From contig OZ034977.1 of assembly GCA_964030785.1 (NCBI GenBank), forward strand, positions 31,703,652 to 31,767,651: a stretch of 64,000 nt of DNA, read 5' to 3'. Shown here piece by piece: positions 31,751-59,800 of the stretch; the first letter of the stretch is position 1; every line of letters starts with the position of its first letter. The DNA is from Siderastrea siderea. Lineage: Eukaryota > Cnidaria > Anthozoa > Scleractinia > Rhizangiidae. The notes beneath the pieces are model-generated. The model saw only the letters and a list, made by a program, of their open reading frames with translations. It was not told where the DNA came from and ran no database searches. Made by a program: the position numbers and the translations under genes.

Positions 31751-31766
31751 ATACCTTTTCTCGTTT

Positions 31767-38440: not shown

Positions 38441-41400
38441 TTTCTAATTAGTAACAGAAGCGCTCTGGCCTAAAGCTGTGTTAAAATTCCTTCAGTTTTC
38501 CTTGAGGGCATCTCTCTCTTTTTAGAAGCGTTCATTAGTCCTCGCACTTTCGCACTTTACTTCCAGGCGTCGACCGTCATACAAACACCACACATCTTGA
38601 ATGATCAGTAGCGCTCGAAAAAAGCCTTGAACAGATAAAATGTTGCCCGTGATACTGTTGCAGCGGCAAAATATCTACAATTTGCGTTATAGATAATTTG
38701 AGGCAAAACGCTTCAACCAAATATGGGGATCAGTGCAACTAAATATATGGATGCATCTCAGCCTTGAAATTGGCGCTATTTGAGCCGTATTTTAGGAGAA
38801 CCGTTATTGTTCCTTTTTTCACCCATAGAGCCAAGCAGTCCAAATTTAGGGCCAAGCAGGGTCAAATTTTCTCACAAAATAGTACATTAAAATGAAATTT
38901 TGTTACCATTCCTTTCGCCTTCAATGTCTTCCCAAGCGGCTTTGAAAACAGCACAAACACAATAAGGCTCTCAATAACGGACAGAAACACAAACGCAAAC
39001 GACACTATGAGATACCAGTCCATGGCCTTGGCATAACTGACTGGAGGCATGGAGGCGTTGATCGCACCCGACAAAAACATTATTGTGAGGATTGTAGTGA
39101 GTCCTATTGTCAACCGACCTCCGGCATCATCAGGGACTAACCAGAATACAATCCAGCTTAAAAGGACAATCAAGATGTCAGGAATGTAAACTTGGAGGAG
39201 GTAGTAACCGAGGCGGCGCTGGAACGAGAAGGTGGCTATTATCGTGGTATAGTTAACTAAAAAGAGCAGAAAAAAAATGTAAATTAGATTCCATTTGGCC
39301 TTGCGTGTGTACGCTGATGACGCTTAGGTGACGTCAGAAAGTGGTAAAAACAAAGAAGTACGCTAGGACTCCCAGAGAACGTCAACATGATAGGATAAAG
39401 CACGAGTTCTTCAACTCATAAAAGAGTTTAAAAGTAAAGATTCATGTATGCTCAATGTTAATAGTATGATATATTTCCTGGAAACACGTGCACTGTGACG
39501 ACATTTTAGTTCATAGATTACTGCAGGTTACTTAACTTACCACCGGAGAAGCTTTGCAATTCAGTGGAAAGTTTTCCTCCGAGGTAAGAGAACTGAGCCA
39601 TATTATCGTGACTGACTTGCACCTCGTGATTTGACCATTTTAATATGACGTCAGTGTCGTCATAAGCATCTGAAAATTCCCAAGACACAACAGGAGAACA
39701 AACTGCTTATTATCATATCCTGTAGCTGTTAGATAAAGGAGGTACATCTCACAGCAATTCGTACGCTGAGAGTATACCACCAATGCACTGTACTAAGCAG
39801 TACGGCTTCCATAAGCCGGCAAAAAAGGAGCAATTATTGGACGACTGTGAATAAGAATGCCAAAAGAAAACGCCAAAAAAATAGATATATTTTGAAGATA
39901 ATTGGAAAACCGTGATCTGCGAGGGTTTTTCAAGGGTCCCGAAAATTGTTGGGCTGTCCAAAGCTGTGTTGTCAATTTAAATTCCGCTCTTTACTCTGCT
40001 GATTTAAATTCATCTGAGACACATTCAACCAAATATTCAAAATGATATCTCACGATTTTACCAATTTCTCAGCTATAATCACATGTATGGTTGTTTGCAA
40101 GGTATTAGTGGCATTGTTAACATCATAATTAATCACTCACTTGCACTGAAAACAAAGGACAATTATAAACATAAAATATTATCTCATCATACACTCTACT
40201 GTATATATCACGAGCTTCATTTGTGTCATTTTATACATTAACCACCCTGAACGCAACGACCAGAGCGCAGAAGAAATGGACCGAATAATAACGCATGCGT
40301 GTTACCCACCCTGTTAAGAACTGATACTTACAACTTCCAAACTTAAGGAAACATGATTGTCTGTCGTGAGGAAAACTGTGTAAGTCCATCACGCAAGACG
40401 CAGTAAAAGCCACCCTGCAAAATAATACACTACAGTAGGTTAACACCTGCGACTTTTAAAAGATATATTTCTCTGGTAACACTATGTCGTAAAAGTTAAT
40501 TTCAAAATACAGTCTTTATTACCTACCCTCTGCTATAAACAAGCTCTCCCTCTGGACTAACCGACGCCTTACTATGTGTTTCCGAGTTTGGTAACATTAT
40601 ATTTGTCACCCGAGCGTTATAGCAGTATGCATCAGGAGTCCACAAGTTTTCTATATCAGCCCCTTTAAAGGTGACAGTGCGATTTATTTTTCCTGCCAGT
40701 CTTTTATCTGTCCAGCTCTGCAAAAGGTAAGAGTAGACCTGGAATTCCTAAAGACAAATAATAATAAAAAAAATAAAATAAAATAAAATAAAAAGTTTAA
40801 AGACTTGGTAGTCAGTTTTCCTTGAGCCTTATAAGATGAACTCACACACTTCAAAGATGGCTGTGAACTTAAAGGTTGCCAACAACGTAATATGGCCATT
40901 TGATCTTAGTAACGTAAACACGACGACTATTGAATCACTAAATCATAAAAAGCATCATCATCTTTGGTGAACTGCCGCTTACAAATGATACAAATGACCG
41001 ACAAGAGCTAGAGCGATACAAGATAATAGATATAAGTTGTAAGGTATAACATGTGTAGGATAAGAGATTAAAAAAGGTGGTGTCTCCTACCATATTAGCT
41101 TCTTGAATATTACCAAATGATTCCACATGCAACTGTGCAAAAACTTCTACAGGCGATCCTGAAATATAATTTCGCGAAAAACAAATTACTTATTTTAATA
41201 AAAGGCAGGATAAGCACAAGATTTTGTAACAAACCTGGTGAATATTAGACTTCCCTGGTCCTTGGTAGAACCTTGGAAAATCCTTGGTGAGTTTTTTTCT
41301 CCCCGGTAGAGAACTTAGTTACCCTGGTGGGGTGTGCTCTTAACAGTTTCCCGAGACTTTGCCGATTGTTTTACAATTGTATTGTGACTCCTGCATACGT

Positions 41401-44400
41401 TTCTTTTTTCAGTTAGTGGTGCAAAATTAAGCAGATTTTAAAAGCAGTTAAAAAGTTCCTTGCCACTGAAAAATGTTAAGAATCGCATTTCCGAGGACCT
41501 AAATTTAAACTTGAGCGTGGGAGCATATCCTCAGACCTCTCCACTAAATACTTGTTTATTCCGCTCTTGTTTGCTCAAATCCCTATCCTTCAATTGATTC
41601 ATGCGAAACGAAGCCTTCCTTTCCCCACTTAAACTTACGTTCTCAAACCCTAGACATGAAATGAAAGTGAGATTCGTTGCTACGTACATAAAGGATTGGG
41701 GGGTCTGGGCAGAACACGCAAAACCCTTAAGCGTCTCGCCTGCATAAAAATACACAGGCACAGCCAAATTCTATAAATCACTGACTTCGGCAAGTGATAA
41801 ATTGAAACATCCTGGTGGACTTATCTCTTCCCTGTTGAGATTTTTATCCAATCCCTGTCGAGCATCCGGGTTTCACCAGGGGCCCGTTTGTCAAAACTCC
41901 CCATAACTTTCTGGGCGCGAAAACTATTTTAGGTGCACAATATTCTTCAATAGCTATACTATTTTTATTGATTTTGAAAGCTAAATTTTAATCTTTATAA
42001 TTTCGTTCAGCATATTGCTAAGTTTGCGCCAATAATTACCATTAGCTGATAAATAAATCAGCTCGAAAAAATACTCACTGGGCCCGGAAAGTTATCTGGA
42101 GTTTCGAGAAACGGCCCCAGTAGTACTGTACGCCCAACGGGACATCTTGGCCAAGTTAATTTGCATACACACCCCCTATGTTCTGATTGGTGGAGAAGAG
42201 CAAAAAGTCGGCCATGTTGGATTTTTCTGGCTTCTGATTGGTGGAGAAGGAAGGGTTGGGAAAGGGTGCAAAAAGCATGTTGGGTATCATGTGATCATTG
42301 GAGTGTGGCTGTGTCATGTGCCAAATAAGGTCATCCGGAAGGGAAATCCAGACGAGTTAGCCTTGTTTTGATGCGAATGGAAAAATGACTTAATAGGGGG
42401 AACCAGAAGGGATCACCATGGCAACCAGGGACGGGGAACGGGAAATGAAAAATCATGACGACAACGGGAAGTGGAAGTGAAAAAAGAATTTTAATGAAAT
42501 GACTTCGATTTTTACAAACGGGAACGTCTGCCAGGACCCGAGTGGTCAGCGGCGTCCCTCAACAAGAGTTCAAAGTCCAACTGGTTAGGTGTGGGGTGGA
42601 CAGCGTGGTGCCTGGACCCGATTGGTCAGCGGCGTCCCATGAGAAAAGTTCAAAGTCCAACTGGGAGAGCGTGGTTTACAAGAAACTCAAACACGTTTCT
42701 TGGCTAGCATGATTCTTTTGACTAGACGTTCCGTCATGGTTTTCTTGCTGGGTAAACAATCGATGGCTTTGATCATCTTGGCATCGGCTTTCCGCATGTC
42801 TTGGAGATTCTGCGCACGACTGTAATCGATGTCGTATTGTTTAACAATCTTGTCCAAACGACGGACACCAGGATTTCCACGTTGCAGGATCTCTAACGCC
42901 TCAGGACTGAAATGATCTGCCATCACACAAAATCACATACACTCCACATTTTCTTGATCTGTCATGAAGATTCTACCTTGCTTGCTTGCTTTGCTTGGAG
43001 TGAAGAATGAGATGGGAAAGGTTGAGTGATTGGGTTTTTATAGAAGAAAAGAGTCATGTGACAAAGCCTCGAGGACCAATCCCCAACAGAAGTCATGGGA
43101 CGAAGCCTCGAGGACCAATCCCCCACCCTGTGTTTTGCTCCCATGATGCTTTTGGAGGGGTGGAGAAGGGGTGGGGGTGCCCCCCTCCCCCCTTCCTATT
43201 TCCCATCATGCTTAGCGAATTTCTGGGTATAAAAACCCTAGAGGTGCACCCCTGGGCTTCACTCCTAGCTTTGATTGGTCAGTCTTGACTTATGCCAGTT
43301 TATGAAAAGAAAAAAAAAATGTCAAAAAGAAAGTCATTGGGCTGTCTGTCCAGTTTTGTGAAGGTAAAGGGAGAAGAGGCTGTAGGAAGAAGAGTCCAAG
43401 CAGAGAGGACACACGTGCAGAGAATAGCGGAAAGAATGGCGGCGAGGAGAGAAGAGACGTGGAGACCTCTGAACCGAAATCGTGTGGCGGCGTTCATCAA
43501 GATGTATTTACTGGCTTTGGTCTACGACGAGAACGCGTATCGTCAGCCAGAAGAAAAAAGAAAATCGAAAAAAATTTTAAATGAAGCCCTGGTCAGACGG
43601 ATCATCCCCTTTATCTACAGGAATATTGTATTGTACTCGATCTTGTCGTACTCCAGTAGGATGCCCTCGTGCTCCTCACATCCTGGATGTACTGCTGACG
43701 TTTGTTCTCGTCGTCGCCTACCCCCTCGGGCCAACCGCGGGCTTCTTGTTTGATTTTCATCCAGGCGTTGATGTAGTCTTGGAGGAGGCGTCACGTGAGA
43801 TGAGTGGAAGAACCAATGACGGGGAAGTCATATGGGGGAAAAAATAGGGGAGGGGTCTTTGGTTTGAAACAACCAATGACAGAGAAGTCACGTGAACCCA
43901 ATAAACAATTAAGGGGTGGGGTACCCCCTCCCCTTCCACATTTCCCCATCATCCTTTGCGATCCACCTGGTATAAGACCCTCAGCATGTGAAGCGGGGCT
44001 TTACTCTCAGTTTTAGTCTGTTTCCAAGATGACAGAAGAGAAGAGAAGAGAGGTTTTAGACGATCTGACCAGTTTTTTAAATGTCCATGACGACGGGACC
44101 TTCAATGAAGCGGTGAACGAGGAAAGAACGCAACTGGAGAGAACGGAGGGAGAGGATGAAAAGGTAAAAGGAGACCCCCTCATGGAGTTAATGGAAATGA
44201 AACGGAAACTACGGGAGCAAAGAAAAAGGTACCGCGAGAAACACCCTGAGACTTTTCGGGAGCAAAAAAGAAGGTACCGCAAAAAACATCCTGAGGTCAT
44301 ACGTGACCAAAACAAGAGACACAGGCAAAAGAATCGGGAAAAATTGACCGAGGTTAAACGGAAAAAGTATCCCGAGGCACACCCCGAGGGAGTCCGCAAG

Positions 44401-45108
44401 CATCAAAAAACAGCGATTCGACGTGCTGAAGAAGAAACGCCCCCTGAGGGAGTCCACAAATATGAGCAGGAGGCACAGTCATCATGTTGAATGAAAACTT
44501 TTTATTTTGATTGTCAGACAAGACCTGTGAGTCAAGAAGAAATGAGAATTTTTTTGTAAATAAATGTTGTGAAAATTTGAATTAAACACTGGTTATTTTT
44601 TTAACAACAAACTCTCTCTCTGTTTTGCCACGTTGTATTGGCGCGTTGCAAACGTTCTTATATTTGTTGTTTTTAGTGTCGCCGTTAGGTGGTTAGAGGA
44701 GGGGGTACCCTACGACACCAGTCACCATAGCAACAGTGTCAAAGAAAGGAAAAGTACTGCCACACGCCTGGGAAAGCGCAGACCATATTTGGGTGGTTAG
44801 AGGAGGGGATACCCCTTTGGAATACGCAAGGAGTGCTGGGAAAAGCAGAGGAAAAAATAAAGGGCGGGTATCCCCTAGTTCATTATTGGCCAACCAGGTA
44901 TCTTGGTGGAGATGACAGGTGTCACGCAACCAAACTCCATGAAGCAGGTGACTCACGTGATGTCTGTCACGTCATACCTTTCATGTGGGCGAGGCCTGTC
45001 ACGTGGCAATAAATGAAGGAGTAGCCCTCTACCCCTCTTGTCTTTGCCCAGGATTTTTTGCGAGGGCGAGTACAAAGGGAAACGATTTCACTTGGAGGGG
45101 CAACAATG

Positions 45109-45173
<65 letters not shown>

Positions 45174-47890
45174 CGATCACGTGACTTTGTTGACCTGTTG
45201 GGAATGTATGTTATTAAGCTATTTTAAATGTTGACCAGCTTCCGTGTGGCGGAAGTGACCGTAGGCTGACCGGTAGGGATTGCAGGCCCATATTTTAAGG
45301 AAAAGCGACGTCCATTAACGTTGCAGGGTCCAGTGTAAAAGAAAAAGTCTGTTGACTGATAGAGATTGCAGGCTCAGGCCTTAGGATAAGACCGTTGACT
45401 AGGATCAGGTCAGAAAAAATACTGCTAACCAGCAGGCTAGGCTCTCTGGAAAATTGGGATCGTGAGCTCCGACCCAGTGGGAGTACTGCTGGCTAACTCA
45501 ATTAGAGAAGATCCCTGCCCGTTCAGGCTTTTGCGGGCTGAGGCTTCAGAGGAAGACTACTGACCAGTGACTAAAGAACAAATTTATGGCGTTTTCTTCC
45601 AGCGATTTTTTGCGATACGTTGCAAGGCCTTGCAGCATACACAACCACCTCTAACCCTCCTCCTAGGGTGCCCTTATTTGGACGGAAACTAGACCAAGGG
45701 AGGAACTCCACCTCCGGTCTTTGTTGATCCCATACCTTTCTCTGCCAAACCTCTGTAGCTACAGACAGCTCAGAGTAGCTTCAAGTAGCTCAAACATAAA
45801 CATTTCTCAAGACAATAATTGTAGCAAAGGCAACCTTGGAGTGCTCACGTGACAATCACTTTTATTCATGTTCGTTACATTACAATTTCATCTGGCCAAC
45901 TTGGTTCACTGCACAGTCTCATGGTCAACTTTCTTTGTCTTCTTCGTCTCCTTCCTTCTCCTCCTCCTTCTCCTCCTCCTCCTCCTCCTCCTCCTCCTTC
46001 TCCTCCTCTTCTTCTTCTTCGTTCTTAGGGACTGGCCGTGGTTGAAAAATTTTGTTCAATAAAAATTTTCGCCTCTCCACGGCTGCGTCTGCGGCGTCTT
46101 CATAATCCATACCTTCTTCCTCGTCCATGAAACGACGTAGGGTTTTCATGACTTCTTCGTGTACGGGATCACGTTTGAGACGACGGAACCACTTGAGATA
46201 GTGCAGGTACAGCTTCCGTAACTTTCCTCTGAAAACTGGCAACAAAGCATTGAAAGCTTTGGCTTCAGCAACCGGTTCAGAAGCCCCCTTTTCCAGTAAC
46301 TGCTCCACTTGTTTTCCGAAGCGTGAACTAAGGGACTCTTTAGCTTTGGCACGGAGATCTTCCCATGGATCAACGATGTCATATTCCACCTCACTGTCGT
46401 CTTCATCCTCGGAATCGATTTCCATGTCTTCATCTTCATTTTCTTTATCCTCTGAATCCTCGTTTATGCTTCCTTCGTCTGATCCAACTTCAGACACCAC
46501 GTCCTCTTGGGAGACAGTAGCCATGGTTGTACTTTCCCCTTGTTGTTTTTCTAAACGTTTCCAACAACCCCGCTTCTCGTGACGGTCTCTATTGTAGATT
46601 CGACTGAACGGTTTTTGACAATACCGGCAAAGATGTGCCATACACTAACTCATGCAGACTCGGCGCTCTTTTAGTCAAAATGAGCACCATGCGCTTGGCG
46701 CCTAGTTACATCGTTGATCCATGGGAAGATCTCCGTGCCAAAGTTAAAGAGTTAAAGAGTTAAAGAGTTCACGCTTCGGAAAACAAGTGGAGCAGTTACT
46801 GGAAAAGGGGGCTTCTGAACCGGTTGCTGAAGCCAAAGCTTTCAATGCTTTGTTGCCAGTTTTCAGAGGAAAGTTATGGAAGCTGTACCTGCACTATCTC
46901 AAGTGGTTCCGTCGTCTCAAACGTGATCCCGTACACGAAGAAGTCATGAAAACCCTACGTCGTTTCATGGACGAGGAAGAAGGTAGGGATTATGAAGAGG
47001 CCACAGACGCAGCCGTGGATAGGCGAAAATTTTTATTGAACAAAATTTTTCAACCACGGCCAGTCCCTAAGAACGAAGAAGAAGAAGAGGAGGAGGAGGA
47101 GGAGGAGGAGGAGGAAGAAGACGGAGAAGACAAAGAAAGTTGACCATGAGACTGTGCAGTGAACCAAGTTGAGCAGATGAAATTGTAATGTAACGAATAT
47201 GAATAAAAGTGATTGTCACGTGAGCACTCCAAGGTTGCCTTTGCTACAATTATTGTCTTGAGAAATGTTTATGTTTGAACTACTTGAAGCTACTCTGAGC
47301 TGTCTGTAGCTACAGAGGTTTGGCAGAGAAAGGTATGGGATCAACAAAGACCGGAGGTGGGGTTCCTCCCTTGGTCTAGTTTCCGTCCAAATAAGGGCAC
47401 CCTAGGAGGAGGGTTAGAGGTGGTTGTGTATGCTACAAGGCCTTGCAACGTATCGCGAAAAATCGCTGGAAGAAAACGAAATTTGTTCTTTAGTGACTGG
47501 TCAGTAGTCTTCCTCTGAAGCCTCAGCCCGCAAAAGCCTTAACGGGCAGGGATCTTCTCTAATTGAGCTAGCCAGTAGTACTCCCATTGGGCCGGAGCTC
47601 ACGATCCCAATTCTCCAGAGAGCCTAGCCTGCTGGTTAGCAGTATTTTTTCTGACCTGATCCTAGTCATCATATTTATCCTAAGGCCTGAGCCTGCAATC
47701 TCTATCAGTCAACAGTCTTTTTCTTTTACACTGGACCCTGCAACGTTATTGAACGTCGCTTTTCCCTAAAATATGGGCCTGCAATCCCTACCGGTCAGCA
47801 TAGGGTCATTTCCGCCACACGGGAGCTGGTCAACATTTAAAATAGCTTAATAACATACATTCCCAACAGGTCAGCAGAGAAACGTGATCG

Positions 47891-47937
<47 letters not shown>

Positions 47938-50900
47938 CATTGTTACCCCTCCAAGTGAAATCGTTTCCCTTTGTACTTGCCCTCGCAAAAAATCCTGGGC
48001 AAAGACAAGCGGGGTAGAGGGCTACTCCTTCATTTATTGCCACGTGACAGGCCTCGCCCACATGAAAGGTATGACGTGACAGACATCACGTGAGTCACCT
48101 GCTTCATGGAGTCTGGTTGCGTGACACCTGTCATCTCCACCAAGATACCTGGTTGGCCAATAATGAAGGAGGGGGTACCCCGCCCTTTATTTTTTCCTCT
48201 ATTTTTCCCAGCACCCCCTGCGTATTCCAAAGGGGTATCCCCTCCTCTAACCACCCAAATATGGTCTGCGCTTTCCCAGGCGTGTGGCAGTACTTTCCCT
48301 TTTTTTGACACTGTTGCTATGGTGACTGGTGTCGTAGGGTACCCCCTCCTCTAACCACCTAACGGCGACACTAAAAACCAACAAATATAAGAACGTTTGC
48401 AACGCGCCAATACAACGTGGCAAAACAGAGAGAGAGTTTGTTGTGAAAAAAATAACCAGTGTTTAATTCAAATTTTCACAAAATTTATTTACAAAAAATT
48501 GTCATTTCTTCTTGACCCCTGACAATCAAAATAAAAAGTTTTCATTCAACATGATGACTGTGCCTCCTGCTCTCGTTTGATGTTGTTGTAGCACTGGGCG
48601 TTCGCCTGCCATTGACCTTTAATACTTGTGGACTCCCTCAGGGGGCGTTTCTTCTTCAGCACGTCGAATCGCTGTTTTTTGATGCTTGCGGACTCCCTCG
48701 GGGTGTGCCTCGGGATATTTTTTCCGTTTAACCTCGGTCAATTTTTCCCGATTCTTTTGCCTGTGTCTCTTGTTTTGGTCACGTATGACCTCAGGGTGTT
48801 TTTTGCGGTACCTTCTTTTTTGCTCCCGAAAAGTCTCAGGGTGTTCTCGCGGTACCCATTACAGAACTGCGCCCATTGAAACATGTCGCACGGGAAAATT
48901 CAAATTAGCAAGAAAGCAAGACACAGAGCATGCGTAACTTAAGGCCGGCCTGTCAATCTTACTGTCAATCAAGTAATCCCCTGTGTAGGTGGACTTCTCA
49001 AGCATTGTTTTTGCAAGGACTACCGAAACGTTGCTCTATTCATCGAAGAACAATAGACGTAACTTGTCAGGTTATCTTAATTACGCTGTATTGTTTAAAA
49101 ATCTCTGAGTTGTAAAATCCAATTACCGTTTGATTTCCGCTTTTTAACTGGAATGAACAGTGAAAAACCGGAAGATTGTTTTGTTTTAAATGTTTCTCAA
49201 GGAAAAAAACCCACAACGATCGATCGAATGTTTAATAAAAAGTCGCACATCGATATGCCGGAGACGTTAAGCTCTTAAAAATGTTGTTAAATTGAATACA
49301 TCACAGTCAACTTTAAAAGTACTTACATTTTATTTGTCCAAGGCAAAAGGCTTTCATGCCGTTAATGGCTGTTGATGCCTTTTTACTTCACGGTGAGTTT
49401 AGGTTAGATTGCGACACGCGAATCGATCGAAGCGACGGCTTCCGACAAGCGATTAACGAAAGCTAGTAAAGCCACGGCTATCGAGGTTTGACTCGTCTTG
49501 AAAACAAAACCGTATTACGCAAATATTTTTCTTGTTGTTCCAAAGAACTACAAATGATTATAAATCTATTAACTATTGGAAAGCAAACTTGAAGCTATAA
49601 GTGCTAGCGCTGAAGCGCGAACACGCTTTCTCATTCCCGATCAGTTACTTTAACTCTGATAACTCCACGAGCTGGCACGAGGCAAACGGCGCTTCAATCT
49701 TTCAATTTCTTGTCGTGAAATTATTACTTGCGAGGTTTTGCATAAACACATCACGCTCCGTTGAAAGTGGCTTTTACCAAAGAACATTTCGACACCTTCA
49801 AACAATACTGATTCATCAGCATTGCCCTTTAAAGGACTCAGAGGCATAACTCTTAGCTCTCTTTTGGGAATTCGTCGCTTTAGGATCATAAGAAGCCGAA
49901 AACGTCGGCAGCCTTTACAACCTCGTTTCCAGGGCATGATGCCCGCAAAGTGTCATGGGTACCCCACTTTTCCCGGGCGACGCGTTTCAATGGGCGCACT
50001 TCTGTAATGTTTTTCTTTGCTCCCGTTGTTTCCGTTTCATTTCCATTAACTCCATGATGGGGTCTCTTTTTACCTTTTCATCCTCTACCTCCGTTCTCTC
50101 CAGTTGCGTTCTTTCCTCGTTCACCGCTTCATTGAAGGTCCCGTCGTCATGGACATTTAAAAAACTGGTCAGATCGTCTAAAACCTCTCTTCTCTTCTCT
50201 TCTGTCATCTTGGAAACGGACCAAAACTGAGAGTAAAGCCCCGCTTCACATGCTGAGGGTTTTATACCAGGTGGATCGCAAAGGATGATGGGGAAATGTG
50301 GAAGGGGAGGGGGTACCCCACCCCTTAATTGTTTATTGGGTTCACGTGACTTCACCGTCATTGGTTGTTTCACACCAAAGACCCCTCCCCTATTTTTCCC
50401 CGATATGACTTCCCCGTCATTGGTTCTTCCACTCATCTCACGTGACGCCTCCTCCAAGACTACATCAACGCCTGGTTGAAAATCAAACAAGAAGCCCGCG
50501 GTTGGCCCGAGGGGGTAGGCGACGACGAGACCAAACGTCTGCAGTACATCCAGGATGTGAGGAGCACGAGGGCATCCTACTGGAGTACGACAAGATCGAG
50601 TACAATACAGATGCCAAGTGACTATCAAGGTTCTTGAAGTCCTCCAAAGTGATGGGCCATAAGGTCTCGTCCAAGGTCCAGACACGATTCCTGTAGATAA
50701 AGGGGATGATCCGTCTGACCAGGGCTTCATTTAAAATTTTTTTCGATTTTCTTTTTTCTTCTGGCTCACGATACGCGTTCTCGTCGTAGACCAAAGCCAG
50801 TGAATACATCTTGATGAACGCCGCCACACGATTTCGGTTCAGAGGTCTCCACGTCTCTTCTCTCCTCGCCGCCATTCTTTCCGCTATTCTCTGCACGTGT

Positions 50901-52474
50901 GTCCTCTCTGCTTGGACTCTTCTTCCTACAGCCTCTTCTCCTTTTACATTCACATAACTGGACAGACAGCCCCACGACTTTCTTTTTGACATTTTTTTTT
51001 TTTCACAAACTGGCATAAGTCAAGACTGACTAATCAAAGCTAGGAGTGAAGCCCAGAGGTGCACCTCTAGGGTTTTATACCCAGAAATTCGCTAAGCATG
51101 ATGGGAAAATAGGGAGGGGGAGGGGGTACTCCCACCCCTTCTCCACCCCTCCAAAAGCATCATGGGAGCAAAACACAGGGTGGGGGATTGGTCCTCGAGG
51201 CTTCGTCCCATGATTTCTGTTGGGGATTGGTCCTCGAGGCTTTGTCACATGACTCTTTTTTTCTATAAAAACCCAATCACTCAGCCTTTCCCATCTCATT
51301 CTTCACTCCAAGCAAAGCAAGCAAGCGAGGTAGAATCTTCATGACAGATCAAGAAAACGTGGAGTGTATGTGATTTTGTGTGATGGCAGATCATTTCAGT
51401 TCTGAGGCGATAGAGATCCTGCAACGTGGAAATCCTGGTTGCTGTCGTTTGGACAAGATTGTTAAACAATACGACATCGATTACAGTCATGCGCAGAATC
51501 TCCAAGACATGCGGAAAGCCGATGCCAAGATGATCAAAGCCATCGATTGTTTACCCGGCAAGAAAACCATGACGGAACGTCTAGTCAAAAGAATCATGCA
51601 AGCCAAGAAACGTGTTTGAGTTTCTTGTAAACCACGCTCTCCCAGTTGGACTTTGAACTTTTCTTATGGGACGCCGCTGACCAATCGGGTCCAGGCACCA
51701 CGCGGTCCACCCTGCACCTAACCAGTTGGACTTTGAACTCTTGTTGAGGGACGCCGCTGACCACTCGGGTCCTGGCACACGTTCCCGTTTGTAAAAATCG
51801 AAGTCATTTCATTAAAATTCTTTTTTCACTTCCACTTCCGGTTGTCGTCATGATTTTTCACCTTTGGTTCCCCGTCCCTGGTTGCCATGGTGATCCCTCC
51901 CGGTTCCCCTATGACGTCATTTTCCATTTGCATGAAAACGAGGGTAACTCGTCTGGATTTCCCTTCCGGATGACCTTATTTGGCACATGACACAGCCACA
52001 CCTCCAATGATCACATGATACAATATGCTTTTCGCACCCTTTCCTAACCCTTCCTTCTCCACCAATCAGAAGCCAGAAAAATCCAACATGGCGACTTTTT
52101 GCTCTTCTCCACCAATCAGAACATAGGGGGTGTGTATGGAAATTAACTTGGCCAAGATGTCCCGTTGGGCGTACAGTACTACTGGCCCCCAGGTCTGTTA
52201 CAGAGGGGTGTATAAAACCAAAGGTAGGGAGAAGCTTCCAACAAGTTGTTACCGAAGCGAGTTTGTGAAAAAAGGGCTCTTGAATTTAAAGAAGTTATTT
52301 CCTGCCACAGGAAACAGAAAAAAATCACAAAGATCCAATTGTCTGGATTTGAACAGGACAATGATTGGTAAGGCCGTGCGCATTCCTTATAATTACCTTC
52401 GTAGAAACCAGGTCTCAATACTGGATCATAATCAGGACCAAGTTCATCCTTCAAATATGAACTGCAATTGATTC
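37954..52474 (-). CDS. Cys-loop ligand-gated ion channel subunit 1 (GABA/glycine-receptor type), seven exons, 5' end missing
   Basis: Exons in transcript order: 52397-52474, 41091-41158, 40527-40747, 40332-40414, 39541-39669, 38907-39256, 37954-38262. All junctions are GT-AG with agreeing phase and give 411 residues plus stop, lacking the signal peptide exon. The order is: YDPVLRPGF; the ligand-binding beta strands with VESFGNIQEANM and W-T-D-K-R-L; a 13-residue Cys-loop (C-VMDLHSFPHDRQS-C); M1; the M2 pore (RLTIGLTTILTIMFL); M3; a short cytoplasmic loop; and M4 at the C-terminus. It would form a pentameric plasma-membrane channel opened by a small transmitter. The intron after the first listed exon is 11.2 kb and contains the palindromic Polinton. 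The residues before M2 Arg0' are Gly-Gly, not the Pro-Ala of known anion channels, so ion selectivity is uncertain. Confidence 0.9.
38907..39256 (-). CDS. Channel gene 1, exon with M1-M3
   Basis: The acceptor CTTTTTAG|TTAAC and donor GGAATG|GTAACA bound 350 bp. The exon encodes F-Q-R-R-L-G-Y-Y before M1, the M2 pore helix, and M3 after S-M-P-P-V-S-Y-A-K-A-M-D-W. Confidence 0.93.
39541..39669 (-). CDS. Channel gene 1, exon after the Cys-loop
   Basis: 129 bp between ATTTTCAG|ATGC and CCGGTG|GTAAGT. It encodes YAYDDTDVILKW, the loop C/beta-10 region before M1. Confidence 0.9.
40332..40414 (-). CDS. Channel gene 1, Cys-loop exon
   Basis: 83 bp between TTTTGCAG|GGTGGC and GGAAGTT|GTAAGT. It carries both Cys of the signature loop, 13 residues apart, with the usual F-P-x-D inside. 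Confidence 0.93.
40527..40747 (-). CDS. Channel gene 1, beta-strand exon
   Basis: 221 bp between GTCTTTAG|GAATTC and CAGAGG|GTAGGT. It encodes S-Y-L-L-Q-S-W-T-D-K-R-L and L-W-T-P-D-A-Y, typical of the extracellular binding domain. Confidence 0.92.
41091..41158 (-). CDS. Channel gene 1, 68-bp exon
   Basis: Flanked by ATTTCAG|GATCG and AATATG|GTAGGA. It encodes SPVEVFAQLHVESFGNIQ. It has the same length and phase as the exon at 60438-60505 of gene 2. Confidence 0.9.
41879..42118. mobile_element. Short foldback MITE that received the Polinton
   Basis: GGGGCCCGTTTGTCAAAACT...GATAACTTTCTGGGC-type ends at 41879-41918 are inverted at 42079-42118 (GGGCCCGGAAAGTTATCTGG, ...AAACGGCCCC). The length is 240 bp with about 40-bp terminal repeats. 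Its terminal GGCCCC is exactly the sequence duplicated by the Polinton insertion. Confidence 0.7.
42113..42118. repeat. Left 6-bp target duplication of the Polinton (GGCCCC)
   Basis: GGCCCC directly precedes the element's first bases AGTAGTACTGTACGCCCAAC and recurs directly after its last bases at 52184-52189. Six-base duplications are the rule for Maverick/Polinton integration. Confidence 0.85.
42687..42923 (-). CDS. Polinton-element gene 1, left copy (78 aa, unknown)
   Basis: The open frame encodes MADHFSPEALEILQRGNPG and ends AKKRV. It is basic, mostly predicted helical, with no membrane segment or zinc motif. It is preceded by a TATA box at 43035-43042 (minus) and two copies of a GGTCCTCGAGGCTT motif. 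The right-arm copy (51383-51619) is also intact and differs at 7 of 78 residues. I do not recognise the family. A small DNA-binding or virion-associated protein would fit, but that is a guess. Confidence 0.7.
   Translation of the reverse strand: MADHFSPEALEILQRGNPGVRRLDKIVKQYDIDYSRAQNLQDMRKADAKMIKAIDCLPSKKTMTERLVKRIMLAKKRV
43001..43090 (-). promoter_or_regulatory. Promoter of element gene 1, left arm
   Basis: TATAAAAA lies at 43035-43042, with initiator-like TCATTC and TCACTC 34-41 bases downstream. Upstream, GATTGGTCCTCGAGGCTT-type motifs occur twice in tandem (about 43061-43080 and 43103-43122). The same arrangement is kept in the right arm. Confidence 0.65.
43160..43266 (+). promoter_or_regulatory. 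Promoter of element gene 2, left arm (shared module)
   Basis: A GGGGGTGCCCCCCTCCCC block is followed by CCCATCATGCTTAGCGA, then TATAAAAA at 43228-43235 and TCACTC at 43260-43265. CATCAT starts 24 bases before the TATA box. The promoter of gene 3 has the same parts at the same spacing. Confidence 0.7.
43292..43753 (+). CDS. Polinton-element gene 2, left copy (unknown; 3' part altered)
   Basis: ATG at 43292 lies about 30 bases after the predicted start of transcription. The protein is strongly basic: KKKMSKRKSLGCLSS, then a helical Arg/Glu-rich region (RIAERMAARREETWRPLNRN) and A-F-I-K-M-Y-L-L-A-L-V-Y. Relative to the right copy, 25 codons are deleted in frame after F-I-Y-R-N. The last 40 or so codons are antisense to the polymerase B remnant, so that tail is probably read-through and not original. 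The family is unknown. A nucleic-acid-binding role would fit the charge. Confidence 0.6.
   Translation: MPVYEKKKKMSKRKSLGCLSSFVKVKGEEAVGRRVQAERTHVQRIAERMAARREETWRPLNRNRVAAFIKMYLLALVYDENAYRQPEEKRKSKKILNEALVRRIIPFIYRNIVLYSILSYSSRMPSCSSHPGCTADVCSRRRLPPRANRGLLV
43629..43790 (-). pseudogene. Remnant of protein-primed DNA polymerase B, left copy
   Basis: Read on the minus strand: L-Q-D-Y-I-N-A-W-M-K-I-K-Q-E-A-R-G-W-P, then N-K-R-Q-Q-Y-I-Q-D-V, then after a one-step frame change E-E-H-E-G-I-L-L-E-Y-D-K-I-E. This matches my knowledge of the segment just before polymerase motif B in Polinton polymerases. Only about 55 codons survive, the frame is broken, and no exonuclease or palm motifs remain. It overlaps gene 2 in antisense. 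Confidence 0.65.
43913..44008 (+). promoter_or_regulatory. Promoter of element gene 3, left arm (shared module)
   Basis: GGTGGGGTACCCCCTCCCC is followed by CCCCATCATCCTTTGCGA, then TATAAG at 43971-43976 and TTACTC at 44001-44006. CATCAT to TATA is 24 bases, the same as at gene 2. The right-arm copy has TATAAAA at 50260-50266. Confidence 0.7.
44029..44490 (+). CDS. Polinton-element gene 3, left copy: charged protein with KHPE repeats (153 aa)
   Basis: The N-terminus is acidic (MTEEKRREVLDDLTSFLN). The second half is a tandem array of about 14-16-residue basic units around R-Y-R-E-K-H-P-E, R-Y-R-K-K-H-P-E, R-H-R-Q-K-N-R-E, and P-E-A-H-P-E. Such Lys/Arg-rich helical repeats suggest nucleic-acid or histone-like binding. 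ATG follows a TATA promoter by about 55 bases. A poly(A) signal AATAAA at 44559-44564 lies 70 bases past the stop, giving a very compact unit. The right copy is split by an insertion. I cannot name the family. Confidence 0.65.
   Translation: MTEEKRREVLDDLTSFLNVHDDGTFNEAVNEERTQLERTEGEDEKVKGDPLMELMEMKRKLREQRKRYREKHPETFREQKRRYRKKHPEVIRDQNKRHRQKNREKLTEVKRKKYPEAHPEGVRKHQKTAIRRAEEETPPEGVHKYEQEAQSSC
44690..45060. other. Non-coding segment of the left arm with repeated GGTACCC blocks
   Basis: GGTGGTTAGAGGAGGGG followed by TACCC or TACCCC occurs at 44687-44715 and about 44791-44815, and GGGTATCCCC at about 44864. Two CACGTG sites lie at 44954 and 45000. It resembles a regulatory or packaging-type region but has no proven role. 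The mirrored copy is at about 48000-48365. Confidence 0.45.
45108..45173. repeat. (AAT)n microsatellite, left arm
   Basis: About 22 AAT units. The mirrored tract in the right arm is shorter (47891-47937), so the two have changed length independently. It produces a spurious poly-Asn open frame. Confidence 0.95.
45235..45590. repeat. Degenerate tandem repeats, left arm, non-coding
   Basis: Units of about 55-70 bp begin with G(C/T)TGAC or GCTAACC-like phrases and contain GGATTGCAGGC, AGATTGCAGGC or TGCGGGCTGAGGC followed by an AGGA(A/T)AAG-like end. Five or six units are visible. The mirrored block is at about 47470-47815. Confidence 0.5.
45925..46641 (-). CDS. Polinton-element gene 4, intact copy: zinc-finger acidic protein (238 aa)
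   Basis: ATG at 46641 opens MAHLCRYCQKPFSRIYNRD, a single C2HC-type finger (C-x2-C, then H and C in R-H-E-K-R-G-C). A Glu/Asp-rich segment follows (residues about 45-88), then a helical domain (DPWEDLRAKAKE; LRKLYLHYLKWFRRLKRDP; F-M-D-E-E-E-G; R-K-F-L-L-N-K-I-F), and a Glu-rich tail coded by a GAG/GAA microsatellite. The first part lies in the palindrome loop and is therefore present only once. The other copy lacks it. No TATA box is seen just upstream, where the palindrome junction cuts the flank. A poly(A) signal is at 45861-45866 (minus). DNA binding is inferred from the finger. The family is unknown to me. Confidence 0.7.
   Translation of the reverse strand: MAHLCRYCQKPFSRIYNRDRHEKRGCWKRLEKQQGESTTMATVSQEDVVSEVGSDEGSINEDSEDKENEDEDMEIDSEDEDDSEVEYDIVDPWEDLRAKAKESLSSRFGKQVEQLLEKGASEPVAEAKAFNALLPVFRGKLRKLYLHYLKWFRRLKRDPVHEEVMKTLRRFMDEEEGMDYEDAADAAVERRKFLLNKIFQPRPVPKNEEEEEEEKEEEEEEEEEKEEEKEGDEEDKES
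45955..46020. repeat. CTC/CTT trinucleotide tract coding for the Glu tail of gene 4
   Basis: On the minus strand it reads GAG/GAA codons. Length differs between the two copies of gene 4, giving Glu tails of different length. Confidence 0.85.
46380..46707. other. Single-copy loop at the centre of the palindrome
   Basis: These 328 bases have no inverted partner. They hold the first 87 or so codons of gene 4, its start codon at 46641 and about 66 bases of its 5' flank. The right boundary joins directly into the truncated gene 4 copy at ACATCGTTGATCC. Confidence 0.8.
46708..47143 (+). pseudogene. Polinton-element gene 4, truncated right copy
   Basis: Homology starts at I-V-D-P-W-E-D-L-R-A-K of the intact copy, so the zinc finger and acidic segment are missing. 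Just after the junction a 9-base unit (GTTAAAGAG-like) is repeated three times at 46743-46769, which breaks the frame (TAA). The rest from about 46784 is open for 119 codons and near-identical to the intact copy. A poly(A) signal is kept at 47202-47207. Confidence 0.8.
47470..47815. repeat. Degenerate tandem repeats, right arm, non-coding
   Basis: Inverted copy of the block at 45235-45590, with the same unit phrases (GCCTGCAATC, GCCTCAGCCCGCA) on this strand. Confidence 0.5.
47891..47937. repeat. (ATT)n microsatellite, right arm
   Basis: About 15-16 ATT units, the mirror of the longer tract at 45108-45173. Confidence 0.95.
48546..50208 (-). pseudogene. Polinton-element gene 3, right copy, split by an insertion
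   Basis: ATG at 50206-50208 begins the same MTEEKRREVLDD protein. The frame runs to about 50010, where a 1,153-bp insert enters inside the first R-E-Q-R-K repeat unit. The rest resumes at 48856 in the 3' half and ends near 48546. About 51 extra bases lie before the end of the frame. The copy cannot make a normal protein. Confidence 0.8.
48857..50009. mobile_element. 1,153-bp DNA transposon-like insert in the right arm
   Basis: CATTACAGAACTGCGCCCAT at the left and ATGGGCGCACTTCTGTAATG at the right form inverted ends. The match extends about 42 bp through GAAAC, CGTCGC and GGGAAAA. The empty site is visible in the left arm (44224-44236 region). No clear target duplication or transposase is seen. 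Short frames inside (49601-49849 and 49650-49937) have no recognisable domain. Confidence 0.75.
50260..50340 (-). promoter_or_regulatory. Promoter of element gene 3, right arm
   Basis: TATAAAA at 50260-50266 (minus), preceded upstream by TGCGATCC, CATCAT and a GGGGTACCCC block, as in the left arm. Confidence 0.65.
50446..50621 (+). pseudogene. Remnant of protein-primed DNA polymerase B, right copy
   Basis: Plus-strand frame L-L-Q-D-Y-I-N-A-W-L-K-I-K-Q-E-A-R-G-W-P continues to Y-I-Q-D-V at 50557, then a frame change gives E-E-H-E-G-I-L-L-E-Y-D-K-I-E before TGA at 50619-50621. It is the mirror of 43629-43790 and carries the same frame break, so the break predates or accompanied the palindrome. 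An upstream TGA is at 50443. Confidence 0.65.
50483..51016 (-). CDS. Polinton-element gene 2, right copy (177 aa, unknown)
   Basis: This is the longer copy: MSKRKSWGCLSSYVNVKGEE, the Arg/Glu-rich helix, F-I-K-M-Y-S-L-A-L-V-Y and then R-V-W-T-L-D-E-T-L-W-P-I-T-L-E-D-F-K-N-L, absent from the left copy. After about residue 137 the frame runs antisense to the polymerase B remnant and is probably not original protein. TATA at 51073-51079 (minus) and the CATCAT module upstream are conserved. Start ATG at 51014-51016. Confidence 0.6.
   Translation of the reverse strand: MPVCEKKKMSKRKSWGCLSSYVNVKGEEAVGRRVQAERTHVQRIAERMAARREETWRPLNRNRVAAFIKMYSLALVYDENAYREPEEKRKSKKILNEALVRRIIPFIYRNRVWTLDETLWPITLEDFKNLDSHLASVLYSILSYSSRMPSCSSHPGCTADVWSRRRLPPRANRGLLV
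51073..51125 (-). promoter_or_regulatory. Promoter of element gene 2, right arm
   Basis: TATAAAA at 51073-51079 (minus), with GCTTAGCGAATTTCTGGG and CATCAT upstream in the gene-sense direction, as in the left arm. Confidence 0.65.
51200..51310 (+). promoter_or_regulatory. Promoter of element gene 1, right arm
   Basis: TATAAAAA at 51264-51271 and TCACTC at 51303-51308. Two GGGATTGGTCCTCGAGGCTT motifs lie upstream, about 42 bases apart. Confidence 0.65.
51383..51619 (+). CDS. Polinton-element gene 1, right copy (78 aa, unknown)
   Basis: Intact frame from ATG 51383 to TGA, MADHFSSEAIEILQRGNPG... AKKRV. It differs from the left copy at seven residues (P/S, L/I, V/C, R/C, R/H, S/G, L/Q). Both copies staying open for their full length is consistent with recent duplication or with constraint. 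Family not recognised. Confidence 0.7.
   Translation: MADHFSSEAIEILQRGNPGCCRLDKIVKQYDIDYSHAQNLQDMRKADAKMIKAIDCLPGKKTMTERLVKRIMQAKKRV
52184..52189. repeat. Right 6-bp target duplication of the Polinton (GGCCCC)
   Basis: Direct repeat of 42113-42118 immediately after the element's last bases, ...CAGTACTACT. Confidence 0.85.
52397..52474 (-). CDS. Channel gene 1, N-terminal exon beyond the Polinton
   Basis: 78 bp between TTTTATTGCAG|GAATC and TACGAAG|GTAATT. It encodes S-Y-L-K-D-E-L-G-P-D-Y-D-P-V-L-R-P-G-F-Y-E, the usual segment before the first beta strand of GABA/glycine-type receptors. Phase 1 at its 3' end joins exactly to the exon at 41091-41158 (GAAG + GATCG). It lies 208 bp past the right Polinton duplication, which shows that the element is intronic. 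Confidence 0.85.
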
Positions 52475-55408: not shown

Positions 55409-55587
55409 CAATAGGCCATTTCCGAATTGCCTTGTGCCTCTTTTTCAAAGCGAGTCTTCGTGCAAACTTTTCATATGAAAATGAGTTTTATCTGCATGTG
55501 AATGAAAACTCATTTTCATATAAAAGGCTATGCACCAAGACTCACTTTGAAAAAGAGGTACAAGACAACTCGGAAATGATCTATTGG
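55409..55587. mobile_element. Foldback MITE, about 80-bp arms
   Basis: CAATAGGCCATTTCCGAATT...CCTCTTTTTCAAAGCGAGTC on the left pairs with GACTCACTTTGAAAAAGAGG...CGGAAATGATCTATTG on the right. CATATGAAAATGAGTTTT and AAAACTCATTTTCATAT also pair in the centre. The whole unit is one imperfect hairpin of about 179 bp. Confidence 0.8.
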
Positions 55588-56810: not shown

Positions 56811-59800
56811 CTGTCGGAGAAGAAAAAGTATTTACTGCCCATGCACTAAACCATAAGTTACATTAAAAGTTATTCAATTTTACAGTTCAAATTGTAAATT
56901 TGCGACTCCTTTTTTTGTGCTTTTGTTGTAATTTGTTGGTTTCCAAACAGACTAAATTTATTGTCACAGGCTTTCTCTGACGACAAGGGTGGCCAGCGAG
57001 TAGCTAGTACACAGTTGGAAAACCAGCATACAAATCGGAAATATACAAGAGCGATATCGAGCAAAGACATTCCCCGGTTCTTAACTCTTCTTTGCTTTAA
57101 AGTGCATTCACCAACCTTCATCTGTTTTCTTTTACTTTCATTCAGCCAAACCACAAACACGATCATACACTCCACCAACGACAAAAAAGCGAGTGAAAAT
57201 GACACCAGAAGATACCAGTCAAGAGCCTTAGGGTAGCTGACTTTTGGCATAGAACCGTTGAGAGATCCAAGGAGGAACATGATGGTTAGGATGGTTGTGA
57301 TCCCCAGGGCCATTCTGTTTCCCATATCAGTTTTGTCCATCCAGAAGACAATCCAACTCAGTACCACAACAAACATGTCAGGAAAGTAGACTTGAATGAG
57401 ATAGTAACCAATACGTCGCTTGAAGAAATATGTCACCGTTATTGTGGAAAAGTTACCTGAAATTCGCAGAATTTGTGTTGTCAGCAGATTAAAAAAACAG
57501 ACAACTATAATAAATAGTTTAGTTTTCTTTTTGTATTCGGATCTACTGATTCAAACTTAATTTCTTGTGGTTATCCATCTCGTGACAATGCCAAGATGGA
57601 TAAGTTTCGTAAGAATTTGTCAATAGAATAGATGGATAGAAAGGTAGATGAATAGAATTCGTAAAAAAAGGAAAGGAAACCGCGCAGTTACGTTTCTAAT
57701 GCATTACTAAACTGGTTACTTTCATTTTATATATCTTGCTTGTCATTCGTCTTGTTTACAATCATAGGTGTCCCCAATTAGTAGGAAAGAAGGCTAGTAG
57801 ACTTTGACACTTTAATAAGAAAAATTATGATAACAACAATAAAAATACTTCAACTTTTCGCCTTTAAGGCCAAATTAGTCAGCCTCGTTGACTATAAATG
57901 GTCAACGAGGACTAGGTCGTTGCCTCCCTCCCCCCCCCCCAAAATATATGTATGTGTACAAGAGAGGATGAAGTAAGAGAGTGAATCCCCGTGCCCCATG
58001 ATAATTATCTGAAATTTATTATTAGTTCGAACCCATGCTGCGAAGGTTATTCTCATCTGTTGCTCCTATGACAACAATATAGTTACATGACGTCATTCTA
58101 ACTGACCAATGAGGTGTAGTCCTTAAAATAACCACGAAGTATGACACAGAACAAAAAATAGATTTCATAGAATAGGATAGAGGGCCATGTGTGGGGGATT
58201 CGCTCTCTCCCTTCATCCTCTCAGTGCACGATTGTTGACTGTCAAAAAATAGTGACGCTTGAGCCAATCCGATTCGTGCATTTACCGTTGCACAAGACTC
58301 CTTATAGCTGATAGTAAATTATTGTACGCGCGCTGTCAAATCAAATTTATTTTTATTATTTGTTTTGAATATTTCTGAAAAAAAATCCTTTTTATCTGCT
58401 GAATCGAAACAACGGATATTCCCGCACCTGCATGTGGTCTATTGATTTGAAAACTGAAATGCAAACAGATTTACCTATAGCGAAGCTGTCCACAGAGGCT
58501 GAAAGAGTGGCCTTGTGGTAGTCAAACTGCGCCATCCGGGTTCTTTGAACTTTTACGTCATCATATTTCCACTTGTAAATAATGTCGTCGGTTGTATAAG
58601 CATCTTGTAAACGCGAAATAAACAACAAATAATTAGAATTTCGCGCATTAAGTCACCTTGCTCTTGCAGCAGAAAACGGGAACATCTTATATGCAAAATT
58701 TACAATTTGTCTTATTCACTACTGCAGCTTGAAATAACACGCAACTCAACCAATGTTGGCGCTTTACACTACCTAACATATTTTGACAGATCGAAGGCCG
58801 ACTACAAGGATTAGTTCGAGGCCTTTCAAAAGGTAACGTTCGTGTGCTCTCATTGTTGGATTTGGATTCATTTTTAATTTAATAATCCGTAGCCTCCTAC
58901 GCAGACGTTCTTTTGGCTTGTCACGTGACAAGCCAAAAAGAACGTCTGCTTAGGAGGCTGAACGATCCGTTGATCGTCCAGGTAATTTATTATCACCGGC
59001 GAAAGTAAAGAACGCAATCGTTTGTCGAGTTTAGCTTCAGATTTTTCATCAAATTGAAAGACGCAGATACTTATTATGACGACGTTAAAAATACTTACAG
59101 CTTCCAATTTTTAGAAAGCATTCCTGTGAGTCAAAGGGAAAATGACGGAGATCCATTTCACAAGATGCTGAGAAAGTTACTCTAAAGTACAAAATTGGTT
59201 GGTCAGAGAGAAAGAAAGAAAGAAAGAATAGAAGGAGTGAATGAGTAAATTGAATGAATGAATGAATGAATGAATGAGTAATAAAAACGCCCTATATGAA
59301 CACAATGCCCCAACTTTATTAAGCTTTATATTTAAGATAAGCCGCCATATTTATTTTGTATGTTTAAAATGTAAGGCAAGAAATAAAACTGAAATGATGA
59401 ATATATGAATATTAAAATCGGATTCCCCCCAACATTATATCATTGCCACAACAAATAAAGGAAGCCGTTTATTTGGGGAGGGTATTATGAAAGGGGGAGA
59501 GGATAGAGGAGATATTGTGGGGGGGGGGGGGGAGTGTTCAAGTCGCACCCATGCAAGGTTTTTATCTCCAGTTTCATTAACATGAATTCACAAGTAGAAC
59601 ACTTTCCCCTGAATGAGACGTTAGTTCATTACCGAATTTCCTACATCATTTTGTTAGGTCAAGCTCTAATAATTTTGAGCTCGGGGTCCGACATGTTAAC
59701 CACTTTACAAAAACATCATACTCTATTCGGCGATCACCCTCCGAAGTACGTCAATGTCCCACAAGACGACGTAATCGGACGAAAACCGCTTTCGCATTTC

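What the first reader, a model, noticed from the sequence alone, without database searches (positions are those of the whole stretch)
42119..52183. A 10-kb perfectly palindromic Polinton derivative with intact target duplications
Seen: two inverted arms of about 4.3 kb, a 328-bp loop, AG...CT ends and GGCCCC on both sides. Known: Polintons have 6-bp duplications, AG/CT ends and a protein-primed polymerase. Protein-primed linear genomes can form fold-back, defective-interfering-like palindromes. Inference: this is a palindromic defective Polinton genome, copied and then integrated as such by a helper element's integrase. A normal Polinton has terminal repeats of hundreds of bases, not the whole element.
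Basis: partly seen in the sequence, partly recalled or inferred. Interest (0 to 1): 0.92.

Follow-up and report, generated by a model that had tools for sequence, protein, structure and literature searches.

The report
Mirror-image satellite Polintons that swap ends
This 10-kb stretch of an animal (likely coral) chromosome is a mobile element whose two halves mirror each other, one of at least eight mirror-image copies read in that genome at different sites between short target repeats; no polymerase or integrase gene was found in it, so it is predicted to be copied and inserted by virus-like Polinton relatives with similar ends, and its mirror shape is likely regrown from a single half.

Summary
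The palindrome is real but not perfect: arms 42119-46379 and 46708-52183 match at ~97%, with a 1,153-bp insert in the right arm, a 328-bp loop, (AGT)2...(ACT)2 ends and exact GGCCCC duplications. It is not a one-off. The genome holds a family of palindromes; eight have both ends and target sites read, seven with exact, different 6-bp duplications, one 5 of 6. Seven of the eight match a common centre; ours lacks it, probably by a later central deletion. Two young copies are near-perfect (8 and 13 mismatches over ~4.1-4.2 kb). Ours, C13 and C11 share a ~2.3-kb inner core but not their outer halves. In C11 both arms carry the same core/helper junction with 8-bp microhomology. Full-length (not all intact) 22.7-28-kb Polintons with like ends and 6-bp duplications occur. 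Reading: a heritable palindromic Polinton satellite, replicated and integrated in trans, that borrows helper ends and regrows its second arm by fold-back (inferred).

The parts
42113..42118 (.). left target-site duplication GGCCCC
52184..52189 (.). right target-site duplication GGCCCC
42119..46379 (+). left arm, begins AGTAGTACTGTACGCCC
46380..46707 (.). 328-bp loop: arm sequence present only once, read as the result of a central deletion; junction 46707|46708
46708..52183 (-). right arm, ends ...ACTACT
44378..46707 (+). inner core shared at 88.5-90.7% with the C13 and C11 palindromes, whose outer halves are unrelated at DNA level
45925..46641 (-). C2H2 zinc-finger/'DPW' protein gene, 238 aa
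46708..47143 (+). right-arm copy of the DPW gene, N-terminal part absent; in-frame stop
42687..42923 (-). 78-aa ORF (MADHFS), remnant of a PF08398 phospholipase-A2-like protein family, N-terminal part missing
   Evidence: relatives in full-length Polintons
51383..51619 (+). right-arm copy of MADHFS ORF
43319..43753 (+). MSKRKS ORF, family found near one end of full-length Polintons; in-frame 75-nt gap against the right arm
50483..50992 (-). right-arm copy of MSKRKS ORF
43630..43787 (-). broken relic (~55 aa) of Polinton protein-primed DNA polymerase B
50449..50645 (+). right-arm copy of the PolB relic
44029..44490 (+). MTEEKRR ORF, 153 aa; a 49-aa stretch is 47-55% alike to stretches of full-length Polintons
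48622..50208 (-). right-arm MTEEKRR ORF, split by the 1,153-bp insert
48857..50009 (.). 1,153-bp TIR-bearing insertion (CATTACAGAA...), absent from the left arm

Best explanation
The locus is one insertion of a multi-copy, palindromic, non-autonomous satellite of Polintons, likely copied by a helper's protein-primed polymerase and predicted to be inserted as a linear palindrome by a helper's integrase. Shown: the palindromic family, a centre common to most copies read, 6-bp target duplications at eight sites (seven exact), Polinton ends, no polymerase or integrase gene found, longer elements with like ends, and arms that match each other within a copy while outer halves differ between subfamilies. 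Inferred: the two identical ends act as terminal-protein origins and integrase substrates for helper proteins. When one arm recombines with a helper end (microhomology template switch), a strand that runs past the centre would fold back on the centre's inverted repeats and copy itself, so the new end appears on both arms. One arm would then be the unit of inheritance. The core gene (C2H2/DPW) shows purifying selection between age groups of copies; its role is unknown, perhaps DNA binding through the zinc finger. Our copy then lost its centre and decayed neutrally after insertion.
For: Palindromes with both ends found and TSD read: 8 (C12 ours, C4, C8, C6, C13, C11, C5, C3); 7 exact and all different, C6 5 of 6. 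Of 4 full-length elements fetched, 3 have exact 6-bp TSDs, C14 does not. Head-to-head inner arms at 11 loci (45 matches, 40 of 120 candidates scored). Centre: 7 full-length and 4 partial matches besides shorter repeats (40 of 42 candidates scored); by my arithmetic it lies within 30 bp of the element midpoint in C13, C11, C5, C3 and C7, not in C8:38832740-38845761 (2.2 kb off). Near-perfect young palindromes C13 and C11. Outer-arm distance within a copy: C12 2.7, C4 2.9, C8 4.9%, against 13.8-18.5% between those three (12.8-26.2% with C6). The same 37-bp junction sequence starts at base 1773 of both C11 arms, with core and helper parents both seen. dN/dS between our two arms ~1.1 (32/1205 nonsyn, 8/325 syn). 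DPW dN/dS within copies 1.14 (10 pairs), between age groups 0.38-0.57 (pairs not independent). The 470-nt centre strand, arm ends included, folds at -189 kcal/mol, 0 of 100 shuffles as low. Long open PolB frames exist: many near 1,390 aa, and 1,449 and 1,460 aa at 87-89% identity to the C13 arm's PolB relic.
Against: No extrachromosomal palindromic molecule, helper action or replication intermediate was observed. C6: outer arms differ by 27.8% while inner arms match; I read it as an unresolved one-arm swap, but it could be a chromosomal rearrangement. C8 has lost part of one inner arm. In the inner arm L and R are nearest to each other in 5 of 10 copies (C12b, C4, C6, C5b, C7, some by little), tied in C13, and not in C1 (8.56 against 6.94%), C11, C3 and C8b. 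DPW compared directly between C12L and other copies of its own age group gives ratios of 0.77 and above with very few synonymous changes, MTEEKRR 0.32-1.90, so constraint shows only across age groups. C3 differs from C11 only in the terminal ~85 bp of the 700 compared. The fetched full-length elements are not intact: C4 and C5 carry reverse-transcriptase inserts and the C4 PolB is in pieces. The best C11-type helper (C5:46358297-46378128) was sampled in 4.8 kb: integrase N-part below Pfam's cut-off, PolB not seen. C5 and C3 palindromes were read at ends and inner arms only. Copy counts are lower bounds from capped searches.
Confidence: 0.74

Rival explanations
1. Ordinary Polinton deletion derivatives whose terminal repeats simply grew long; both arms are kept alike by the usual TIR homogenisation (panhandle or recombination) and no fold-back at the centre is needed.
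For: Full-length Polintons here also have alike ends (92, 95 and 98% over the first 100 bp in 3 elements), so some end homogenisation exists anyway.
Against: In C13 and C11 the repeats take in the whole element down to a 186-bp spacer, against 46-1,447 bp in intact vertebrate Mavericks (PMC8097293, passages); identity of arms and junction over 4.2 kb.
Confidence: 0.17
2. Arms are homogenised by gene conversion on the chromosome after integration.
For: Large inverted repeats can undergo conversion (general knowledge, recalled).
Against: Arm-specific indels persist in ours (75 nt, 49 nt, 1,153 bp); differences are spread along the arm (bins); C6 outer arms stay different.
Confidence: 0.06
3. Independent one-off fold-back (defective-interfering-like) events of different parents, each integrated once.
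For: Ours has its own junction at 46707|46708.
Against: A common centre at 11 places and a common core in ours, C4, C8, C13 and C11 point to one ancestral palindrome.
Confidence: 0.03

Closest known systems
Polinton/Maverick elements
   Same: (AGT)2//(ACT)2 ends and 6-bp TSD (PMC8097293 passages); PolB relic and ORF families of full-length Polintons
   Different: 10 kb instead of 22.7-28 kb for full-length elements here; inverted repeats make up nearly the whole element; integrase, ATPase and four other ORFs or parts from longer elements not found in it
Polinton-like viruses with long TIRs in protists (PMC12220804, passages)
   Same: TIRs of hundreds to thousands of bp, 5-6-bp TSD
   Different: reported there as complete viral elements; no palindromic satellite in the passages seen ('palindrom' 0 occurrences in the main text)
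Palindromic defective adenovirus genomes (end-duplication and symmetric recombinants; recalled, not found)
   Same: protein-primed replication of a genome with two copies of one end
   Different: as recalled, by-products of virus growth, not an inherited, transposing family with TSDs
Teratorn (PMC6431247, passages)
   Same: virus-derived mobile element with long inverted repeats
   Different: herpesvirus/piggyBac, 41-182 kb, with a unique region between the repeats

Membership tests
Polinton/Maverick (autonomous) | 6-bp target-site duplication | tested here: met
   GGCCCC; 7 of 8 palindromes exact
Polinton/Maverick (autonomous) | (AGT)2//(ACT)2 termini with inverted repeats | tested here: met
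   motif from PMC8097293 (passages)
Polinton/Maverick (autonomous) | protein-primed PolB gene | tested here: not met
   only a ~55-aa relic per arm
Polinton/Maverick (autonomous) | rve integrase gene | tested here: not met
   integrase of the C5 full-length element finds the C11 full-length element but nothing in our element or in C13, C11 and C4 left-arm pieces
Polinton/Maverick (autonomous) | packaging ATPase and capsid genes | tested here: inconclusive
   ATPase and the 476-aa and 246-aa ORFs of full-length elements not found in ours; whether those ORFs are capsid genes was not established (no PDB match for the 476-aa ORF)
Non-autonomous Polinton derivative | ends like those of longer elements in the same genome | tested here: met
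   about 70-80% over hundreds of bp to full-length C4, C5 and C11 elements; C11-type ends 94-99% alike to three 19-20-kb elements
Non-autonomous Polinton derivative | mobilised in trans by helper enzymes | not testable with these tools
   no experiment; integration shown only by TSDs
Snap-back (copy-back) defective genome | two copies of one genome end joined head to head | tested here: met
Snap-back (copy-back) defective genome | made by polymerase fold-back on its own strand | not testable with these tools
   inferred from the same junction on both C11 arms

The most novel reading that the evidence does not exclude
A heritable palindromic DNA satellite: its genetic unit is one ~4-kb arm, its second arm is regrown by fold-back priming at a conserved 186-202-bp centre, and by template-switching onto the ends of whatever Polinton is active it re-licenses itself to new helpers, the new end appearing on both arms at once. 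C6 would be a frozen intermediate with one arm swapped.
Probability: 0.55. Interest if true: 0.92.

Novelty: new variant of a known kind. Interest (0 to 1): 0.84.

Why it matters
Virus particles of Mavericks have not been observed (abstract start of PMC8097293), and their free replicating form is expected rather than seen (recalled). A family of palindromic satellites with Polinton ends is indirect evidence for a linear, end-replicated form, and suggests a way for a parasite to keep pace with changing helpers: swap one end, then copy the arm. It makes testable whether Polinton-type DNA replicates as a free linear molecule in this host, and supplies natural junctions that record template switching. 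No palindromic Polinton appeared in the titles and abstract starts listed (20 of 44 papers; 20 of 32; 5 of 5; 12 of 79; 15 of 26); the library holds open-licence papers only, so this is not proof of absence from print.

Tried and rejected
IMG/VR scans with the DPW and MADHFS proteins and a DPW alignment gave no relative. Pfam and PHROGs gave no match over a curated cut-off or at E<0.001 for the window ORFs scanned (6, 5). The DPW profile has no credible PDB match (best E 0.22). Its predicted structure is mostly helical, mean pLDDT 69, and Foldseek finds nothing at E<=0.001. The idea that 46664-46707 is the start of a divergent gene was dropped when the C4 relative diverged without keeping that frame. 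The idea that our loop is the original fold-back point was dropped. Literature searches for adenovirus palindromes gave noise or nothing; one search gave nothing of use.

Rows dropped before counts: arms with under 380 aligned columns (C12R, C14R); arms covering half or less of a segment; BLAST pieces under 60-70 bp in listings; columns in the poly-E part of the DPW gene.

Full report
Observation. The window holds a 10,065-bp element at 42119-52183 flanked by exact GGCCCC copies. The left arm 42119-46379 is repeated, inverted, from 52183 down to 46708. Arms differ by ~3.3% outside the 328-bp loop, plus a 75-nt gap in the left arm, and a 49-nt and a 1,153-bp insert in the right arm. The insert 48857-50009 has matching inverted ends (27 of the first 30 bases). 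So it is a clear palindrome, but not a perfect one.

What the arms carry. Each arm has a MADHFS ORF, a truncated relative of PF08398 phospholipase-A2-like proteins; in the alignment our copies have Y where the five PF08398-type relatives shown have H in KQHDIDY (that this H is catalytic is recalled). Each arm also has a MSKRKS ORF, a broken ~55-aa relic of PolB, a MTEEKRR ORF, and all or part of a C2H2/'DPW' ORF. The DPW family search gave 123 proteins at E<=0.001 among 7,982 candidates scored; two of the 120 listed are named as Oculina patagonica proteins. I infer a stony-coral host; the genome itself is unnamed (830.9 Mb, 402 contigs). Full-length Polintons in the genome encode relatives of MADHFS, MSKRKS and part of MTEEKRR and share DNA with the PolB relic.

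A family, not a single copy. A terminal 601-bp query found 71 matches (40 of 198 candidates scored). Pieces fetched around paired ends showed further palindromes at C4:20873k-20884k, C8:29628k-29636k (one inner arm partly lost) and C6:53913k-53928k. C4, C8 and C6 share a centre at ~95%. A centre query found 7 full-length and 4 partial copies, besides many shorter repeats (40 of 42 candidates scored). An inner-arm query found head-to-head pairs at 11 loci (40 of 120 candidates scored). TSDs were read in 8 palindromes: GGCCCC, CCCTCT, CCTGTG, ATTCTA, AAAAGC, CAGGTC and CATTTG exact, and CAGTGT/TAGTGT in C6. C7:50614265-50622251 and C8:38832740-38845761 have inverted ends but their TSDs were not both read. 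For C5 and C3 only ends and inner arms were read. Arms without a partner in the stretch fetched occur too (C2, C10).

Age. C13 and C11 are near-perfect palindromes (8 mismatches and 57 gap columns in 4,140; 13 mismatches and 5 gap columns in 4,244), while ours and C4 have 2.0-3.6% arm divergence depending on the segment. Between our two arms the ORF differences look neutral (dN/dS ~1.1). The DPW gene is neutral within copies (1.14, 10 pairs) but constrained between age groups (0.38-0.57; pairs not independent); 19 of 25 arms have no stop in the part aligned. Against this, C12L against copies of its own age group gives DPW ratios of 0.77 and above on few changes. For MSKRKS, between-copy ratios are 0.17-0.29 (6 comparisons), against 0.71 within ours.

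Modularity and concerted arms. Ours shares only bases 2260/2284-4589 of the arm (44378-46707) with C13 and C11 (88.5-90.7% in the long matches); its outer 2.26 kb has no match there apart from a 91-bp secondary hit from within the core. Outer segments agree within a copy (2.7, 2.9 and 4.9% for C12, C4 and C8) and differ by 13.8-18.5% between those three. C6 is the exception (27.8%) and looks like a one-arm swap. In the first 100 bp, 10 of 11 elements have their own other end at least as near as any end of another copy (C13 tied at 100 with C5b; C6 only 83 against 82; full-length C11 92 against 91); C5b is 99 against 100 to C13. In the inner arm the picture is weaker: 5 of 10 copies, one tie, four not. 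C11's outer part matches a 19.8-kb element (C5:46358297-46378128): bases 1-700 at 94% and 1702-1791 at 100%; the part between was not fetched. That element carries a GRF protein and an integrase N-part (18.9 bits, below the 32.6 cut-off). At the junction helper and core share AAAAACAG, and the same 37-bp junction sequence starts at base 1773 of both C11 arms. One switch followed by arm regrowth explains this with the fewest events; that step is inferred.

Mechanism. Shown: Polinton ends and TSDs, so rve-type integration of the whole palindrome is the natural reading; PolB only as a relic and no integrase found. Inferred: helper PolB and terminal protein copy from either end, and fold-back in the centre, whose single strand with its arm ends is strongly self-complementary (-189.4 kcal/mol, shuffles -52.6), regenerates the palindrome from one arm. 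Our copy lacks the centre: compared with C4 it has lost ~0.8 kb around the middle (my arithmetic), with no more than a few bases of homology at 46707|46708. Possible helpers: PF03175 found 204 matches, many in open frames near 1,390 aa; frames of 1,449 and 1,460 aa are 87-89% identical to the C13 arm's PolB relic (150 of 1,572 candidates scored). The full-length elements fetched are not intact (reverse-transcriptase inserts in C4 and C5, C4 PolB in pieces).

Literature. Passages of PMC8097293 give the (AGT)2//(ACT)2 motif, 6-bp TSDs and TIRs of 46-1,447 bp. Passages of PMC12220804, PMC6431247 and PMC2836005 show no palindromic Polinton; 'palindrom' was a search term in the first two only. The partial listings showed none by title or abstract start. 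Adenovirus palindromic defectives are recalled only.

Noticed in passing
31747-32948: Tandem array of about ten ~113-bp units (offsets in the self-comparison; sequence read).
   Followed up: no
48857-50009: 1,153-bp insertion with inverted ends CATTACAGAA(C/G)TGCGCCCATTGAAAC and no obvious target duplication in the right arm.
   Followed up: partly
55409-55586 and 58891-58959: Self-complementary stretches (180 bp at 83%, 70 bp at 94%), perhaps hairpin-type MITEs; not tested.
   Followed up: no
38862-39323 and 56870-57550 (-): ORFs that by eye look like exons of ligand-gated ion channel genes; not tested.
   Followed up: no
G000 C2:41748k-41758k and 41779k-41789k (L037, L036): Two right arms 30.7 kb apart with the same end flank, so perhaps a later segmental duplication.
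   Followed up: partly
G000 C3:8262k-8268k and 8308k-8315k: Two more places with the C13-type PolB relic in opposite orientations plus one listed DPW copy each, ~46 kb apart.
   Followed up: no
L058:998-1747 (-): C11-type arm encodes a 250-aa ORF with sub-cutoff DprA/SLOG-like matches, lying in the outer half that our copy does not share.
   Followed up: no
P0121, P0122: Database proteins share our MSKRKS/antisense-PolB fusion at 83-86% identity, so this outer-arm type exists beyond this copy.
   Followed up: no
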